A stretch of 64,000 nucleotides of DNA from Streptosporangiales bacterium (lineage in GTDB: Bacteria > Actinomycetota > Actinomycetes > Streptosporangiales > WHST01). Under the pieces are notes generated by a model, which was not told the origin of the DNA, did no database searches, and saw only the letters and a list, made by a program, of their open reading frames with translations. Both the position numbers and the translations under genes were made by a program. The stretch is from NCBI GenBank assembly GCA_009379825.1, contig WHTA01000012.1:47421-111420 (forward strand). The letters are read 5' to 3'. Position 1 is the first letter of the stretch; each line of letters opens with the position of its first letter. Below, piece by piece: positions 52,937-60,362 of this stretch.

Positions 52937-54100
52937 ATGGAACTTGCGGCGCGGATGGACAGGCTGGGCACCGAATCGGCGTTCGAGGTGCTGGCCAGGG
53001 CGAAAGCGATGGAAGCGGCCGACCGGTTGGTCGTGCACCTGGAGATCGGCGAGCCCGACTTCGACACCCCCGCGCACGTCGCCGACGCCGCGGCCGAGGC
53101 GCTGCGCGCCGGTGAGACGCACTACGTGCCCGCGCCCGGCATCCCCGCGGCGCGGGAGGCGGTGGCCGAGTTCCTCGAACGCACCGGGCGGCTGCGTACG
53201 AGCCCGGACCGGGTGATCATCACGCCGGGCGCGAAGCCGATCATGTGGTACACCATGCTCGCGCTGTGCGACACCGGCGACGAGGTCATCTACCCCGACC
53301 CCGGCTTCCCGATGTACGAGTCGATCGCGTCGTTCGTCGGCGCCACCCCCGTACCGGCGCCACTGCGCGAGGGGAACGGGTTCCGGCTGGACCCGGCGGA
53401 GCTGGAGTCGCTGGTCACCAGCCGGACAAAGCTGTTGATCCTGAACTCGCCGCACAACCCGTGCGGCGGCGCGCTCACCCGCGCGGACTGCGAGGCGATC
53501 GCCGAGATCGCCATCAGGCACGACCTCACCGTGCTCTCCGACGAGGTCTACTGGGCGATCCGCTACGACGGTGAGCACGCCAGCGTCCTCGACGTGGACG
53601 GCATGGCCGACCGCACCATCCTGCTCGACGGCTGGTCGAAGACGTTCGCCATGACCGGCTGGCGGCTCGGCTTCGGCGTCTTCCCGCAAGCGCTGGTCGA
53701 GCCGCTGACCAGGCTGGTGGTGAACTCGGTGTCGTGCACGTCGGCGTTCAGCCAGCACGCGGCCATCGCCGCGCTGAACGGCCCCTGGCAACCGGTGGAC
53801 GCGATGGTCGAGGAGTTCCGCACCCGCCGCCAGGTCGTCGTCGACGGGCTGAACGAGATCCCCGGCATCTCCTGCGTGGCCCCGGCGGGCGCGTTCTACG
53901 CGTTCCCGAACGTGCGCGCACTCGGCGTCGACGCCAAACACCTGGAGGAGCGGCTACTCGACGAGGCCGGCGTCGCCTGCCTCTCCGGCAGCTCGTTCGG
54001 CCGCTACGGCGAGGGCTACCTACGCCTGTCGTACGCCAACTCGGTCGCCAACATCCAGACGGCACTGACCGCGATCGCCGACACCGTCAGCTCTCTGTAA
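52937..54100 (+). CDS. class I/II pyridoxal-phosphate aminotransferase
   Basis: 387 residues. The cofactor Lys is in LLDGWSKTFAMTGWRLGFG; NSPHNPCGGAL binds substrate carboxylate, and LSDEVYWAIRYDG supplies the Asp contacting the ring. Fold type I, close to aspartate-type enzymes. Divergent from the IclR gene; 71 bp between the starts contain the shared promoters and an ACCGCG/CGCGGT pair (52883-52908). Substrate pair unknown. Confidence 0.94.
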   Translation: MELAARMDRLGTESAFEVLARAKAMEAADRLVVHLEIGEPDFDTPAHVADAAAEALRAGETHYVPAPGIPAAREAVAEFLERTGRLRTSPDRVIITPGAKPIMWYTMLALCDTGDEVIYPDPGFPMYESIASFVGATPVPAPLREGNGFRLDPAELESLVTSRTKLLILNSPHNPCGGALTRADCEAIAEIAIRHDLTVLSDEVYWAIRYDGEHASVLDVDGMADRTILLDGWSKTFAMTGWRLGFGVFPQALVEPLTRLVVNSVSCTSAFSQHAAIAALNGPWQPVDAMVEEFRTRRQVVVDGLNEIPGISCVAPAGAFYAFPNVRALGVDAKHLEERLLDEAGVACLSGSSFGRYGEGYLRLSYANSVANIQTALTAIADTVSSL

Positions 54101-54177
54101 ACCACCGCGGTACCGACACCGTTCGACTTCTATCCGTCATCGTGGGTTGACAAATGACATGACATTGCGACGATGCG

Positions 54178-54933
54178 ATGATGCGATGGGCGGAGACAGA
54201 CCTCGAAGAGGGACCGGTGCCACTGTGGTTCCAGATCAGTGATCGGCTCCGCTCTGCGGTGACCGCAGGTGAGTTCGCACCCGGCGACACCTTGCCGCCG
54301 GAGTCCGCATTGATCCGGCGCTTCGGAGTCAGCCGCACAACCGCGCGTTCGGCGCTTGACCAGCTGGAACACGAGGGGTTGGTCAAACGCAAGGCTGGCC
54401 GCGGCTCGATCGTGCTGCCGCCGAAGGTGGATCAACCGCTGAACCTGCTGGCGTCGTTCGCCGAGGACATGAAGGCGCGCAACCTGACGCCCAGCTATCG
54501 CACTCTCGATGTCAGCGTCGTCCGTGCACCCGCGGAGGTCGCGGCCAAGCTGGACATCAAACGTGGCACCAGGCTGGTCCATATCGAGCGGCTACTCCTT
54601 GCCGACGGCCAGCCTCTTGCCTCCAGCCGATCCTGGCTCGAACCGTCGGTCGTACCCACCAGCGACCGGCCGACACTCGAAACGATGGACTCGACGTCGC
54701 TCTACCGCTGGCTCGAGGACACGGCAGGAGTGCGTATCGCCCTGGGTGAGGAGTACATCGAAGGGGGCGTCGCGCAGCCTCCGATCGACGAGCAACTGAG
54801 GATCGAACGGGGCGCGCCGGTACTGATCGCACGCCGGCTGGCGAGCACCGCAGACTCCAGGCCGGTCGAGTACGTGGTTCTGCACTACCGCGCAGATCGC
54901 TACCGGTTCAGGATGGAGCTGGCCCGCCCATGA
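54178..54933 (+). CDS. GntR-family regulator (HutC type)
   Basis: 251 residues. Winged helix at about residues 12-80: PLWFQISDRLRSAVTAGEFA, GDTLPPESALIRRFGVSRTT, ALDQLEHEGLVKRKAGRGS. The UTRA effector domain follows (about 100-245). First gene of the operon ending with the sugar ABC importer. The short upstream gap has TTGACA (54147) and ATGACATGACAT (54154-54165), a possible operator. A stretch of GATGCGATG repeats leads into the start, so the exact start (54178 or 54181) is uncertain. Confidence 0.93.
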   Translation: MMRWAETDLEEGPVPLWFQISDRLRSAVTAGEFAPGDTLPPESALIRRFGVSRTTARSALDQLEHEGLVKRKAGRGSIVLPPKVDQPLNLLASFAEDMKARNLTPSYRTLDVSVVRAPAEVAAKLDIKRGTRLVHIERLLLADGQPLASSRSWLEPSVVPTSDRPTLETMDSTSLYRWLEDTAGVRIALGEEYIEGGVAQPPIDEQLRIERGAPVLIARRLASTADSRPVEYVVLHYRADRYRFRMELARP

Positions 54934-55859
54934 CCAGCACAGCGACCGTGCTGGTGGTCGGCGACGCCAGCCTGGACACGACCGTGCTCGTCGACCAGGT
55001 GCCCGCCCCGGACGAGAAGGTCCTCGCGCACCGGCTGGTCGAGGGTGTCGGCGGTGTGGCCGCCAACTCAGCGATCGCCGCGGCCGTCGCCGGAGCACCG
55101 GTCCGACTGGAGACGGCACTAGGCCAGGACACGGCGGCCGCGGAATGCCTGCGCGGTCTGCGCGCCGCCGGCGTGGACGTACGCGCCGAACACGACTCGG
55201 ACCGGACGGCACGTGCGTTGATCCTGCTCGACGGGCACGGCGAGAAGCGCCTGGTCCTCGCGCCCGGCTCACAGTTCTACCCGAGCGTCCAGCGGTGCGG
55301 GACGCTGCGGCTCGACGGGGTCGGCTGGATGCACACCGCGGCCTACGACGCCGTCGCCGCCCGACGGCTCGTCGATCGCTGCCGGCAGGCGGCGATCCCA
55401 TGGTCGGTGGACCTCGAGCCGGCGACGCTCGGTAACGGGCTCGCGGTCCTGGCGGACGTACTCCGCGGCGCCGCGGTGGTCTTCTGCAACACCCGTGCCG
55501 CTGCGCTGCTCGGTCAGGACGCCGCGGAACAGCTCACGGCAGCCGGTGCGCAGCACCTCGTCATGACCGCGGGACCCGCCGGCGCCACGCTCGTGACCGC
55601 CGGGACGTCGATACGGGTCGAGCCGCCGGCCACCGCCGTCGACGTCGTGGACACAACCGGTGCGGGTGACTGCCTCGCCGGCTCGTACGTGGCGCGAACC
55701 CTGCACGGGGACGCTGCCCCCGACGCCCTCGCCTACGCGGTAGCCGCGGCTTCACTGAGTTGCGCCGGCCTCGGCGCGCATCCGGCGTACCCGACGCCGA
55801 CGGCCGTGAAGGCGAGGCTCTCCCAACCCACAGAACAGCGAGGAGCGGTTGGTCCATGA
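54930..55859 (+). CDS. PfkB-family carbohydrate kinase
   Basis: 309 residues, overlapping the GntR gene (ATGA). N-terminal GDASLDTTVLVDQVPAP, substrate motif GVGGVAANSAIAAAVAGAP, and PfkB signature 2 VDTTGAGDCLAGSYVA with catalytic Asp. It phosphorylates a sugar or nucleoside in the cytosol; ribokinase-like in fold. With the transporter downstream it gives a simple uptake-and-phosphorylate pathway. Substrate unknown. Confidence 0.93.
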   Translation: MTSTATVLVVGDASLDTTVLVDQVPAPDEKVLAHRLVEGVGGVAANSAIAAAVAGAPVRLETALGQDTAAAECLRGLRAAGVDVRAEHDSDRTARALILLDGHGEKRLVLAPGSQFYPSVQRCGTLRLDGVGWMHTAAYDAVAARRLVDRCRQAAIPWSVDLEPATLGNGLAVLADVLRGAAVVFCNTRAAALLGQDAAEQLTAAGAQHLVMTAGPAGATLVTAGTSIRVEPPATAVDVVDTTGAGDCLAGSYVARTLHGDAAPDALAYAVAAASLSCAGLGAHPAYPTPTAVKARLSQPTEQRGAVGP

Positions 55860-56707
55860 CAATCCAGGGGGTACTCCCGCCCAAGCCGGACGCGTTGTGC
55901 GCTCTGTTCGCACAGCCGAAACCGGTGATCGGGGTCATCCATCTGCCACCGCTACCCGGCGCACCACGTTACGGCGGCGAGCCGGTCGCCGACATCTACG
56001 CGGCAGCGGCACGGGACGCGCGGGTACTGAGCGAGGGCGACATCGACGGCATCATGGTCGAGAACGCCAGCGACATGCCGTTCGCCCGCCCGGATGACGT
56101 CGGCCCCGAGACCGTTGCCGCACTCACCGCCGCCTGCCTCGAGATTCGCTCGGTCAGCGACGTCCCGATCGGTATCACGTGCGTCGCCAACGCCGTGATT
56201 CCCGCACTTGCGGTCGCGAAGGCGGTGGACGCCCGGTGGGTCCGTGCCAACCAGTGGGTGAACGCGTACGTCGCGAACGAGGGCTTCCTCGACGGTCCCG
56301 CACCGCGGGCGATGCGGTACCGCAAAGCCATCGGCGCACACGACGTACACGTGTTCGCCGACGTACACGTCAAGTTCGGCGCGCACGCGATCACGTCGGA
56401 TCGCAGCGTCGACGAGCAGGCGACGGACGCGGAGTGGTTCGATGCCGACGTTCTCATCGCCACGGGCACGAGAACCGGGTCACCGACCTCACCCGAGGAG
56501 GTCCACGAAGTACGCAAGGGCACGGTGCTGCCGGTCATCGTCGGCTCCGGGCTCGACTCCGACCAGGTCGATCGGCTCTTCGGTGTGGCCGACGGCGCGA
56601 TCGTCGGCCAGTGGCTGAAGCACGAGGGCAGGTGGTGGAACCCGGTCGATCCTGCGCGGGTGGAACGGCTGATGACGGCCGTCGACAAGTACCGGACCCG
56701 GGAATGA
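55856..56707 (+). CDS. BtpA/SgcQ-family TIM-barrel protein
   Basis: 283 residues from ATG 55856, overlapping the kinase (ATGA). Recognised by VIGVIHLPPLPGAPRYGG, DGIMVENASDMPF, CVANAVIPALAVAKA and VGSGLDSDQVDRLFGVADG. BtpA was named for photosystem I assembly in cyanobacteria, but heterotroph homologues such as SgcQ lie in sugar operons. A phosphate-binding barrel acting on the kinase product would fit. Activity is not established. Confidence 0.9.
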   Translation: MTIQGVLPPKPDALCALFAQPKPVIGVIHLPPLPGAPRYGGEPVADIYAAAARDARVLSEGDIDGIMVENASDMPFARPDDVGPETVAALTAACLEIRSVSDVPIGITCVANAVIPALAVAKAVDARWVRANQWVNAYVANEGFLDGPAPRAMRYRKAIGAHDVHVFADVHVKFGAHAITSDRSVDEQATDAEWFDADVLIATGTRTGSPTSPEEVHEVRKGTVLPVIVGSGLDSDQVDRLFGVADGAIVGQWLKHEGRWWNPVDPARVERLMTAVDKYRTRE

Positions 56708-57426
56708 CGTCCCTGACCGACGCGACGGACGTCTTCGCCGCAGCCGGCGGCGAAGCCTGCGTCGTGCTGTTTCTGGCCCGCCGCCAACACGGCGTATCGC
56801 GGCGCAGCCGCCTCACCGCAGTGGCCGGTGTTCACACCGCGCTCGACCAACTGGCGGCGGACGGGTGGTCGCTGTCGGTCCGGCACATGTTCGGCGAGAG
56901 CAACTCGCCCGCCTGCTACGCGACCGGGTTCGCGCACGACATCGACTTCGCCGGCGCGTTCGAAGCGCCAGATTCCCAGCAGGCACTGCAGGGCACCATC
57001 GCACTCGAGGAAGCCGGTTGGGGGACGCTCGCCCGCACCGAGTGGCTGCTCGGCATCCGCGAGTTCGCCCCTGTCGCACCGACCACGGAGCCGACCGACC
57101 ATCCCTGGGGGTTCATCGCACTGTGGCAGTGGAACGACGCCTGGCAGGCAGCGACCGCTGAGGAACGCAGCGCATACGACGCCGAGTGCGATGTGGCGTT
57201 CACGCACGACGTACAAGGCGGTGCCCGCATCGCCGGCCGGCACCGGCTCGACTGGTCGAGCCGGTGGCACCACGTGGGTCTCTGGGAGGTGCCGAGTGTC
57301 GAGATGCTCGATCGCGCGATGCGCGAACACGAGCGGGTCGCCGACTTCAAGTTCGGCACGTCGCGTCACTACGTAGGCCGGCGCAGGCCATTGCTCGCAC
57401 TGCTCGAGGAGGACACCGATGTCTGA
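56704..57426 (+). CDS. uncharacterised protein with two ferredoxin-fold-like halves
   Basis: 240 residues, start overlapping the BtpA gene stop (ATGA). I do not recognise the family with certainty. Residues about 15-125 (ACVVLFLARRQHGVS, FEAPDSQQALQGTIALE) and 130-240 (WGFIALWQWNDAWQA, ERSAYDAECDVAFTHD, LWEVPSVEMLDRAMREHE) look like two alpha/beta halves of the darcynin or dimeric-barrel type. No signal or membrane segment. Likely an enzyme or binding protein of the same pathway. Confidence 0.6.
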   Translation: MTSLTDATDVFAAAGGEACVVLFLARRQHGVSRRSRLTAVAGVHTALDQLAADGWSLSVRHMFGESNSPACYATGFAHDIDFAGAFEAPDSQQALQGTIALEEAGWGTLARTEWLLGIREFAPVAPTTEPTDHPWGFIALWQWNDAWQAATAEERSAYDAECDVAFTHDVQGGARIAGRHRLDWSSRWHHVGLWEVPSVEMLDRAMREHERVADFKFGTSRHYVGRRRPLLALLEEDTDV

Positions 57427-57733
57427 TCTCGTATGGATCCACTACAGCCGCCCGAGAACAGCCTGGTACGAGCTCGACGAGCAGCAGCGTACCGGCGAGC
57501 GCGCCAAGTTCCTGGCCGTACGCGAGGCCAGCCATCAGCGCGGCGGCTCGTCCCAGGGAACTTTCTCCGTCCGCGGGCAGAGCGACTACTCCACGGTGGA
57601 GATCTGAAACTTCCCCGACGCGGAGACCGCCTTCGACCACTGGCGGCGACTCGTCGACGCCGGCTATGCGGAGTGGTTCGAGGCCGCGAACAACATCGGT
57701 CTCGGCACAGCGCAGGAGACCACTCATGGCTGA
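57419..57733 (+). pseudogene. small dimeric-barrel-like protein gene interrupted by an in-frame TGA
   Basis: From ATG 57419 (overlapping the previous gene by eight bases) the frame reads MSDLVWIHYSRPRTAWYELD, then stops at TGA 57605-57607. The same frame continues without break as NFPDAETAFDHWRRLVDAGYAEW to a stop at 57731, overlapping the next gene start. The intact form would be 104 residues, resembling one half of the protein before it. The tight overlaps show an operon gene, so TGA probably replaces TGG (Trp). Sequencing error or nonsense mutation are the main choices. Confidence 0.7.
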
Positions 57734-58496
57734 GACCGCCCTGCTCGAGGCTCGCGGGATCGGCCGCAGCTTTGGTCACGTACACGCCTTGGAGAACGCG
57801 AACTTCAGCGTCTACCCCGGCGAGATCTGCGCGCTCATCGGTGACAACGGTGCCGGTAAGTCCACGTTGGTGAAGATCCTGTCCGGCGCGGACGGACCGG
57901 ACGCGGGACAGCTCTTCCTCGACGGCGAGCCGATCGAGCTCACCAGTCCCTCGCACGCACAGCAGCTCGGCATCGCCACGGTCTACCAGGACCTCGCGCT
58001 CGCTCCCGAGCTCGCCGCCGCACAGAACCTCTTCCTCGGCAACGAGACGCTCCGCAGCGGCCTGCTCGGCAAGCTCGGGTTCGTCGACCGCAGGAGCATG
58101 CGCAAGGTCGCTACCGTACAGTTCGCCAGACTCGGCATCACACTGCGCTCCCCGGACGTACCGGTGGCGTCCCTGTCCGGTGGACAACGGCAGTCGATAG
58201 CCATCGCCCGGGCCGCGATGTGGGCGGACAAGGTGATCTTCATGGACGAGCCGACGGCCGCCCTCGGCGTCGTGCAGACCGGACGCGTGCTCGACCTCAT
58301 CAAGTCGGTCAGGGACGACGGCATCGCGGTGGTGCTCGTCAGCCACAACATGCCCCAGGTACTGGACATCGCCGACCGCATCGAGGTGCTCAGGCTGGGC
58401 CAGCAGGTCGCCACCTTCGACAGCGGCGAAGCCGAGGTCGAGGACCTGATCAAGGCGATGACCAGCGGCACGATCGACCAGGGAGCCGCGGCATGA
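57726..58496 (+). CDS. sugar ABC transporter ATP-binding protein (single-domain type)
   Basis: 256 residues. Walker A GDNGAGKST (about residues 38-46), Q-loop VYQDLALAPELAAAQNLFLG, signature LSGGQRQSIAIARA, Walker B VIFMDEPTAALG, H-loop VSHNM. It has one nucleotide domain, as in FrcA, not two as in RbsA. Overlaps the permease gene (ATGA) and drives it. Confidence 0.94.
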   Translation: MAETALLEARGIGRSFGHVHALENANFSVYPGEICALIGDNGAGKSTLVKILSGADGPDAGQLFLDGEPIELTSPSHAQQLGIATVYQDLALAPELAAAQNLFLGNETLRSGLLGKLGFVDRRSMRKVATVQFARLGITLRSPDVPVASLSGGQRQSIAIARAAMWADKVIFMDEPTAALGVVQTGRVLDLIKSVRDDGIAVVLVSHNMPQVLDIADRIEVLRLGQQVATFDSGEAEVEDLIKAMTSGTIDQGAAA

Positions 58497-59551
58497 CCAC
58501 GACCCAGAAGCAACCACAGCCATCTGCCGTCATCGAGGCACCGGTGGAGAGCGCACGAACCCAGTGGACACGCCGGCTGACCCGCGGCTGGATATTCGTC
58601 CTGCTGCTACTCCTCGGCGGCATCTTCACCGTGCTGCGTCCGGAACAGTTCGCCACGGCATACAACCTGTCCACGTTGGCGGTCGACGCGGCGATCCTGC
58701 TCGTGCTCGCCATCGGGCAGACCTTCGTCATCATCACCGCGGGCATCGATCTCTCGGTCGGCTCGGTGCTCGTGTTCTCCTCGGTCGTCGGCGCGAAGCT
58801 GATGCTGGCGCTGTCGGGCGCCCAAGGCACGACGTACGGCACCACTGACGCAAACTGGGGGATCATCGCCGTCGGCGCTGTCGCGGCGATCGCCGCCGGT
58901 GCGGGGTGGGGTCTGCTCAACGGCCTGCTCGTCGCGTTCGTGCGCATCCCTGCGCTCGTCGTCACGTTGGGCACGATGGGCATGGCACTGGGATTCGCGC
59001 AGATCATCACCGACGGCGAGGATGTCAGGGCGGTCCCGGAGCGACTGGTCGGCATGATCGGCACGGGGAAGTTCGCCGGCATCCCGACGCTCATCGTCAT
59101 CGGTGTGGTCATCACGGTCCTCGCAGCGGTCTGCCTGCACATGACCAGGTTCGGTGAACGCACCTATGCGGTCGGCTCCAACCGGGAGGCCGCCAGGCGC
59201 GCGGGCATCCCCGTGCGGTCCCAACTGCTGCGCGTGTACGTCCTGTGCGGCGCACTCGCCGGGGTGGCCGGTGTGATGTCCATCGCGAGGTTCGCCACGA
59301 CCACCATCGGTGGCCACGCGACCGACAACCTGTCCACGATCTCCGCCGTCGTGCTCGGCGGTACGAGCCTGTTCGGGGGCGTCGGCGGGGTTCTCGGCAC
59401 ACTCGTCGGGGTCTTCATCCCCATCACCTTGTTGAACGGCTTCGTCATCCTCGGAGTACCGCCGTTCTGGCAGACGGTCGCGATGGGGGCCGTACTCATC
59501 CTCGCCGTCTTCATCGACCAGCTCAAACGTCGCCGCTATCTCCGCACGTAG
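58493..59551 (+). CDS. sugar ABC transporter permease
   Basis: 352 residues with about nine helices; a 30-residue cytosolic leader precedes helix 1 (WIFVLLLLLGGIFTVL). AIGQTFVIITAGIDLSVGSV and VGSNREAARRAGIPV (ATPase docking loop) are hallmarks of the ribose/fructose importer family. FGGVGGVLGTLVGVFIPITL follows. The permease appears intact although its binding protein is broken. Confidence 0.94.
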   Translation: MTTTQKQPQPSAVIEAPVESARTQWTRRLTRGWIFVLLLLLGGIFTVLRPEQFATAYNLSTLAVDAAILLVLAIGQTFVIITAGIDLSVGSVLVFSSVVGAKLMLALSGAQGTTYGTTDANWGIIAVGAVAAIAAGAGWGLLNGLLVAFVRIPALVVTLGTMGMALGFAQIITDGEDVRAVPERLVGMIGTGKFAGIPTLIVIGVVITVLAAVCLHMTRFGERTYAVGSNREAARRAGIPVRSQLLRVYVLCGALAGVAGVMSIARFATTTIGGHATDNLSTISAVVLGGTSLFGGVGGVLGTLVGVFIPITLLNGFVILGVPPFWQTVAMGAVLILAVFIDQLKRRRYLRT

Positions 59552-59579
59552 CCCTTCCCCCAACCGACTGGAGAAACCC

Positions 59580-60325
59580 GTGAGACGTTCTGTACTCGTC
59601 CTTGCCACCGTGTCCGCCCTCGGCCTCACCGCCTGTACCTCGGGCTCCACGACCCCGGGAAACGAAGCGAAGATGCCGGACGACAGGAATGTCGCCCTCG
59701 TACTCGGTGTGAAAGGCAGTCCCTTCTACCAGGCCCTGGCCTGCGGGGCGAAGGCCGAGGCGAAGAAGCTCGACCTCTCGTTGAAGGTATCCGCCCCGGA
59801 GCAGTTCGCCGCGGACTCACAGGTGCCTGTCGTCAACGCTGTCCGCGCCCAGAACCCGGCGGTCGCGGCGGTCGTACCGACCGACGCGCAGGCGCTCGTG
59901 CCGCCGGTGCGGCAGCTGACCCAGGCAGGCACGCGGGTCGTCACCGTCGACCAGACGCTGAGCAATACCAAGCTGCCCGAATCCCAGGTCATCACCAGCA
60001 ACGTGCACGGCGGGGAACTCGCCGCGGACAAGCTCGCCAAGGAGCTCGGCGAGCGGTGACCGGTCTCAAGCAGGCGAACGCCACCAAGAAGGTCAAGCTG
60101 ATCGCGTACGACGCGGCCCCGGCCGAGGTCAATGCGCTGAAGAACGGCACCATCTCCGCGCTCATCGCGCAAAACCCGGCGCAAGAGGGACGGGTGACCA
60201 TGCAGCTCGCCGACAAGCTGATGAAGGAGGCGGACGTGCCCAAGCGGAAGCTCACCGAGCTCGTGGTCATCGACAGCAAGCAGCACGAGCTGGCCGACAA
60301 GTACGAGTACAACTCGACGTGCTGA
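59580..60325 (+). pseudogene. sugar ABC transporter solute-binding lipoprotein, internally deleted and frameshifted
   Basis: The first part (59580-60059, 159 residues) has a lipoprotein signal with LTAC lipobox (Cys19) and binding domain NVALVLGVKGSPFYQAL up to GGELAADKLAKELGER, then stops. From GTG 60056 a frame shifted by -1 resumes with TGLKQANATKKVKLIAYDA to 60325 (89 residues). Family members have about 70-80 residues between these points (the hinge and start of lobe 2). The join forms a GTGA overlap by accident. The product is unlikely to bind solute. Assembly collapse is an alternative. Confidence 0.85.
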
Positions 60326-60333
60326 CCTCGCCG

Positions 60334-60362
60334 CCGGTGGGCAGCGGCGCGCTGCCCACCGG
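60334..60362. terminator. bidirectional hairpin terminator
   Basis: Perfect 12-bp arms CCGGTGGGCAGC (60334-60345) and GCTGCCCACCGG (60351-60362), five-base loop, between the binding-protein remnant and the convergent response regulator gene. Confidence 0.85.

What the first reader, a model, noticed from the sequence alone, without database searches (positions are those of the whole stretch)
54178..60325. GntR-PfkB-BtpA operon with sugar-type ABC importer and two unknown proteins
Eight co-directional genes, seven junctions of which most overlap, join a kinase, a BtpA/SgcQ barrel, two ferredoxin-fold-like proteins and an RbsC/FrcA-type transporter. BtpA proteins have no agreed enzymatic role outside cyanobacteria. 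The layout predicts uptake, phosphorylation, then a barrel-catalysed step on a phosphorylated compound. The two unknown proteins may be the uncharacterised enzymes of a novel catabolic route. Best candidate in this window for an undescribed pathway.
Basis: partly seen in the sequence, partly recalled or inferred. Interest (0 to 1): 0.72.

Follow-up and report, generated by a model that had tools for sequence, protein, structure and literature searches.

The report
Damaged sugar-uptake operon with BtpA barrel
This is a bacterial gene set that would import a sugar-like compound, probably phosphorylate it and process it with a little-understood BtpA barrel protein plus two unassigned proteins that sit next to one branch of BtpA in all four loci read; the copy here carries two breaks and has probably stopped working, and no description of its pathway turned up in the papers searched.

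Summary
The operon is real: GntR/UTRA regulator, PfkB kinase, BtpA/SgcQ barrel, a 240-residue unknown (unk1), a ~100-residue unknown (unk2) and an RbsB/RbsA-half/RbsC-type importer. Two genes are broken here: unk2 has an in-frame TGA at a tryptophan invariant in 12 relatives, and the binding protein lacks ~77 central residues and shifts frame. One same-genus genome lacks the 6.3 kb stretch, so it is probably an insertion. unk1's confident predicted model has the chlorite dismutase/coproheme decarboxylase two-domain barrel, yet no conserved histidine on the helix that carries the heme ligand there; an invariant cysteine probably takes its place. BtpA's model falls among mostly phosphate-binding TIM barrels. 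Best reading: import, phosphorylation, BtpA step on the phosphate, then a heme-independent step by unk1/unk2. Substrate and chemistry are inferred, not shown. Eight paper searches gave no assigned pathway; a 2026 paper calls the related E. coli sgc operon's function unestablished.

The parts
54178..54933 (+). GntR/UTRA (HutC-like) transcriptional regulator, 251 aa; probable local regulator
   Evidence: PF07702 9.9e-35, PF00392 8.6e-19; below the cut-offs of the NCBIfam equivalogs listed
54930..55859 (+). PfkB/ribokinase-family kinase, 309 aa, intact, with a DTTGAGD motif (meaning of the motif recalled)
   Evidence: PF00294 3.4e-37; best PDB matches are ribokinases and a sulfofructose kinase; 45% to the Sagittula kinase, 48% to the Acidisoma kinase frame
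55856..56707 (+). BtpA/SgcQ family barrel, 283 aa, intact
   Evidence: PF03437 1.7e-62, TIGR00259 204 bits over cut-off 153.4; AlphaFold2 pLDDT 84.8; mostly phosphate-binding TIM barrels as nearest folds
56704..57426 (+). unk1, 240 aa, intact; predicted two-domain alpha+beta barrel with the Cld/ChdC fold, invariant Cys162
57419..57733 (+). unk2, ~104-codon frame broken by TGA at 57605-57607 (position of an otherwise invariant Trp)
57605..57607 (+). in-frame stop (TGA) in unk2
57726..58496 (+). single-domain RbsA-type ABC ATPase, 256 aa
   Evidence: PF00005 1.7e-29; 65% to L002, 72% to L003
58493..59551 (+). RbsC-type permease, 352 aa
   Evidence: PF02653 1.5e-32; 65% to L002, 69% to L003
59580..60325 (+). 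RbsB-type substrate-binding protein gene with a lipoprotein-like N terminus, broken: ORFs 59580-60059 and 60056-60325, about 77 central residues missing and frame shifted
   Evidence: PF13407 profile 1-120 and 202-255 of 258; alignment to the intact L002 and L003 proteins
54082..60359 (.). stretch absent from the same-genus genome G397, where the flanking genes are neighbours

Best explanation
The stretch is a catabolic-type operon, probably inserted and carrying two broken genes in this genome, whose intact relatives would import a sugar-like compound, likely phosphorylate it with the PfkB kinase, probably isomerise or cleave the phosphate with the BtpA barrel, and likely finish with a heme-independent step by unk1 and unk2. 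Shown: gene order, families, the two breaks, the linkage of unk1/unk2 to one BtpA branch, and the missing stretch in one sister genome. Predicted: folds of unk1 and BtpA. Inferred: substrate class (ribose-type binding protein), order of steps, chemistry, control by GntR. Commitment on chemistry: BtpA acts as an isomerase/lyase, its phosphate held by the conserved GSG loop (230-232), with acid-base residues from the DxHxK strand (169-173) and E69/N70. unk1 and unk2, members of the alpha+beta barrel superfamily, turn over the BtpA product without heme, with Cys162 in the active pocket.
Against: No substrate, product or activity is known to me for any member. The BtpA fold matches are tied and do not name a reaction; its alignment was shallow (38 rows, the other 37 at 73-93% identity). 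A second BtpA with TenA sits in the same run in Sagittula, so the step order may differ. The Acidisoma kinase frame is itself broken, so phosphorylation by this kinase may not be essential there. The Sagittula set has no importer next to it. E. coli sgc deletion mutants showed no growth defect on standard substrates and 190 carbon sources, so BtpA operons may not serve single-carbon-source growth.
Confidence: 0.45

Rival explanations
1. The operon is a relic with no function in this host: gained by gene transfer and now decaying, so nothing about it is selected here.
For: Nonsense codon in unk2 and deletion plus frameshift in the binding protein; unk1 not found in either of the two other genomes of the genus (one is 77% complete) and the site is empty in one; operon GC3 0.79-0.93 against 0.946 in the one flanking gene measured.
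Against: GntR, kinase, BtpA, unk1, ATPase and permease frames are all intact. This rival concerns the copy, not the family, and is compatible with the best explanation.
Confidence: 0.6
2. unk1 is still a heme or tetrapyrrole protein, with Cys162 as a thiolate ligand in place of the proximal histidine.
For: Same two-domain fold as heme proteins; hhalign puts the invariant Cys on the proximal His in 4 of 4 runs and 36 of 40 half-samples. A reference title seen in another paper ties cyanobacterial BtpA to the first step of tetrapyrrole synthesis (Skotnicova et al. 2024, reference entry only).
Against: MAFFT puts a gap opposite Cys162 in 4 of 4 runs and Ile/Val/Ala opposite the His (one run); an invariant Trp stands where ChdC has its invariant Tyr136; no heme-related gene name near unk1 in the two annotated relatives; the genome has its own coproheme decarboxylase.
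Confidence: 0.12
3. unk1 and unk2 are not catalysts of the main route but helpers, for example a sugar mutarotase or a binding/assembly partner of BtpA.
For: Small alpha+beta barrels such as L-rhamnose mutarotase occur in sugar operons (recalled, not tested); Sagittula keeps unk1/unk2 between two BtpA genes.
Against: unk1's many invariant polar residues (D159, C162, D163, R179, R181, D183, H209, D214, H222) look like an active site.
Confidence: 0.3
4. The two breaks are sequencing or assembly errors and the operon is intact.
For: Draft genome of 169 contigs; one lesion is a single codon.
Against: The second lesion is a loss of about 230 bases by comparison with L002 and L003, not a base-call error; two separate lesions lie in one operon.
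Confidence: 0.12

Closest known systems
BtpA/SgcQ family (PF03437, TIGR00259), incl. the E. coli sgc operon
   Same: BtpA homologue beside a sugar-type uptake system for an unknown sugar (PMC5797941, passages); [quoted passage not shown]
   Different: Here an ABC importer and a separate PfkB kinase stand in place of the phosphotransferase system, and unk1/unk2 are added
Plasmid clusters LacI-SBP-ATPase-permease-phosphotriesterase-GATase1_like-PfkB-BtpA-TenA/M20 in Alphaproteobacteria and Pantoea
   Same: BtpA (46-57% identical to the branch), PfkB-type kinase in 10 of 11 loci, single-half RbsA-type importer in 10 of 11
   Different: No unk1/unk2 annotated; phosphotriesterase in 9 of 11, glutamine-amidotransferase-like in 10 of 11, TenA in 7 of 11, M20-type or Zn-dependent hydrolase in 6 of 11; importer only 22-47% identical (six of the eleven compared)
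Chlorite dismutase / coproheme decarboxylase (PF06778)
   Different: No PF06778 match, no conserved His on the ligand helix, Trp in place of the invariant Tyr, sits in a sugar-type operon
DUF6616 (PF20321)
   Same: Weak match to unk1 137-207 (20.0 bits) and to L002 unk2 (18.8 bits)
   Different: Both below the 27-bit cut-off; DUF6616 itself is titled a family of unknown function

Membership tests
BtpA/SgcQ family | PF03437 / TIGR00259 over curated cut-off | tested here: met
   211.6 bits vs 30; 204 vs 153.4
Photosystem I biogenesis BtpA (NF045918) | equivalog cut-off | tested here: not met
   188.5 bits vs 400
PfkB kinase superfamily | PF00294 over cut-off | tested here: met
   128.8 vs 25.8
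Ribokinase (TIGR02152) | equivalog cut-off | tested here: not met
   118.5 vs 299.65
CUT2-type ribose/hexose importer | RbsB-, RbsA- and RbsC-type parts side by side | tested here: met
   PF13407, PF00005, PF02653; binding protein broken here; no sugar-importer equivalog cut-off reached among those listed, so no substrate name
Cld/ChdC | two-domain alpha+beta barrel | tested here: met
Cld/ChdC | PF06778 profile match | tested here: not met
   no match at E 0.1
Cld/ChdC | proximal heme His on alpha3 | tested here: not met
   no conserved His in helix 152-171 (at most 6 of 49 at any position). Opposite the ChdC His stands Cys162 by hhalign (36 of 40 half-samples; in the other 4 Cys162 faces a gap) and Ile/Val/Ala by MAFFT
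Cld/ChdC | heme or coproheme binding | not testable with these tools
   needs protein
ChdC | catalytic Tyr (taken, from recall, to be the invariant Tyr136 of the genome's own ChdC) | tested here: not met
   Trp141 aligns with Tyr136 in 4 of 4 MAFFT runs and 36 of 40 hhalign half-samples; W141 unchanged in 49 of 49
DUF6616 | PF20321 gathering score | tested here: not met
   20.0 (unk1), 18.8 (L002 unk2) vs 27
Phosphotriesterase/GATase/TenA-type BtpA cluster | those three partner genes | tested here: not met
   none among the genes of 54178-60325

The most novel reading that the evidence does not exclude
unk1 founds a heme-free enzyme class on the chlorite dismutase/coproheme decarboxylase fold, in which the heme-ligand histidine has become a catalytic cysteine, and which works with a dedicated BtpA and unk2 in an undescribed phosphorylating sugar (or N-linked sugar) degradation route spread thinly across Actinomycetota and Proteobacteria.
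Probability: 0.35. Interest if true: 0.78.

Novelty: new variant of a known kind. Interest (0 to 1): 0.5.

Why it matters
BtpA proteins are widespread, and a 2026 study still lists the substrate and function of E. coli's sgc operon as unestablished. This branch gives a compact setting, one importer, one kinase, one barrel and two partners, in which substrate and order of steps can be tested with few proteins. If unk1 works without heme on the Cld/ChdC fold, it extends what that fold is known to do.

Tried and rejected
Tried without gain: sequence searches of the PDB with unk1, its profile and unk2's profile gave only weak, unconvincing matches; a 97-residue gene after BtpA in Roseivivax (L034) shows no Pfam match and no match to the 12 unk2 relatives at E 1; no inverted or direct repeat of 7 or more bases was reported at 54085-54200 that would mark a GntR operator. 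unk1 surveys found only the own genome among 396 phylum genomes and 61 relatives, one weak match (31% over 107 residues, E 1.3e-4) among 297 genomes of one family and one (E 9.1e-4) among 401 of another; neither weak match is counted as an orthologue. Rejected: that unk1/unk2 belong to BtpA in general; that the importer is shared with the phosphotriesterase-type clusters (binding proteins 22-30%, against 27-28% for another sugar importer on the Acidisoma plasmid); that unk1 is the genome's coproheme decarboxylase (a clear one lies at G000:C2). The PDB names for the L002 binding protein are ribose-type at the top (5dkv, 2ioy, 1dbp), too broad to name a ligand. In G396, the other genus member, no close copy of the flanking aminotransferase was found (best 40%), so its site could not be read.

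Full report
Observation. Family matches are strong for the regulator, kinase, BtpA, ATPase, permease and both binding-protein pieces. No NCBIfam equivalog cut-off is reached among the matches listed for kinase, ATPase, permease or binding protein, so no substrate can be read from annotation. Two genes are broken: unk2 by TGA at 57605-57607, where 12 of 12 aligned relatives have Trp, and the binding protein, whose pieces match residues 22-159 and 237-325 of the 325-residue L002 protein.

Origin of the copy. unk1 was not found in the two other genomes of the genus, one of them only 77% complete. In that one, G397, the aminotransferase that precedes the operon (85% identical) and the response regulator that follows it are neighbours: window 52937-54081 matches L044 3568-2424 and window 60360-62500 matches L044 2251-69. 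The 6.3 kb between is missing there and about 170 bases take its place. In the other, G396, the site could not be read. Operon GC3 is 0.79-0.93 against 0.946 in the aminotransferase, the one flanking gene measured. Gain by transfer is the simpler reading; loss in G397 is not excluded.

Do the unknowns travel with BtpA? unk1 has 254 homologues at E 0.001, itself included, with source names from Streptomyces, Sciscionella, Mycobacterium, Acidisoma, Labrys, Faunimonas, Caballeronia and a Dormibacteria bin. unk2 has 10, the query's own entry included, a lower bound of a word-based search. Three other loci with unk1 could be read: Mycobacterium sp. NAZ190054 (L002), an Acidisoma plasmid (L003) and a Sagittula plasmid (L004). 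All three, like the window, read BtpA-unk1-unk2; three of the four follow with ATPase-permease-binding protein. In Sagittula a second BtpA and TenA follow instead. The four BtpA are 72-79% identical. Contig lengths agree: 22 lengths are shared between the unk1 and BtpA lists, 18 of them of 3500 bases or more, against 0.25 in a crude chance model. This is indirect, and only the best 120 of each list are shown.

BtpA in general does not carry them. Of 194 plasmid records with BtpA, 2 hold unk1, the same two that exceed 60% identity. Eleven other BtpA loci, chosen from the 60 listed, show none in their annotation. They show another theme: PfkB-type kinase 10 of 11, glutamine-amidotransferase-like 10 of 11, phosphotriesterase family 9 of 11, TenA 7 of 11, M20-type or Zn-dependent hydrolase 6 of 11, RbsA-half importer 10 of 11. 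These product names are PLSDB's; Pfam was run on only five of the partner proteins (from L009, L010 and L011) and agreed. The window's importer is not the orthologue of theirs (six loci compared; 22-47% against 59-72% within the branch). One link remains: the second importer ATPase beside the Acidisoma set is 75% identical to the one beside BtpA-TenA in Pantoea, and both modules go on with an AI-2-type binding protein, two permeases and an ArgE/DapE-type deacylase. Together with the induction of E. coli sgc on nitrogen-containing carbon sources this hints, no more, at nitrogen-bearing substrates.

unk2. Its profile meets unk1's C-terminal half at P 0.038 and DUF6616 below cut-off. A one-domain alpha+beta barrel is likely, not tested by a model.

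Literature. Eight searches of the open library on BtpA, SgcQ, DUF6616 and DUF3291 (one search listed 25 of 891) gave no assigned pathway. One genome paper names the BtpA/SgcQ family only in passing (PMC11433714, passages). E. coli sgc is described as a system for an unknown sugar (PMC5797941, passages), and in 2026 as unestablished, with a pentitol or unusual-carbohydrate working model and no growth defect of mutants on standard substrates and 190 carbon sources (PMC13343008, section 8). Two further searches concerned the Cld fold and mutarotases. Most subscription papers are not covered, so this is absence from one library only.

Verdict. A real, compact and apparently undescribed catabolic-type set whose copy here is broken.

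Noticed in passing
L004 14156-17612: Sagittula stellata plasmid: unk1/unk2 lie between two BtpA genes of different branches (52% identical to each other), followed by TenA.
   Followed up: partly
L003 10278-11156: The PfkB gene of the Acidisoma plasmid cluster appears to change frame near its C-terminal motif and is left unannotated in PLSDB.
   Followed up: partly
L006-L011, L034-L038: A second, commoner BtpA cluster with phosphotriesterase family, glutamine-amidotransferase-like, PfkB, TenA and M20-type genes recurs on rhizobial, roseobacter and Pantoea plasmids; no pathway for it turned up in the papers searched.
   Followed up: partly
L044 2242-2410: The sister genome's spacer at the empty site holds several copies of a short CACATGGCG-like repeat, some on the opposite strand.
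   Followed up: no
L003 15836-20826: A second AI-2-type ABC importer plus ArgE/DapE-type deacylase follows the unk1 operon in Acidisoma; its ATPase is 75% identical to one beside BtpA-TenA in Pantoea (L010).
   Followed up: partly
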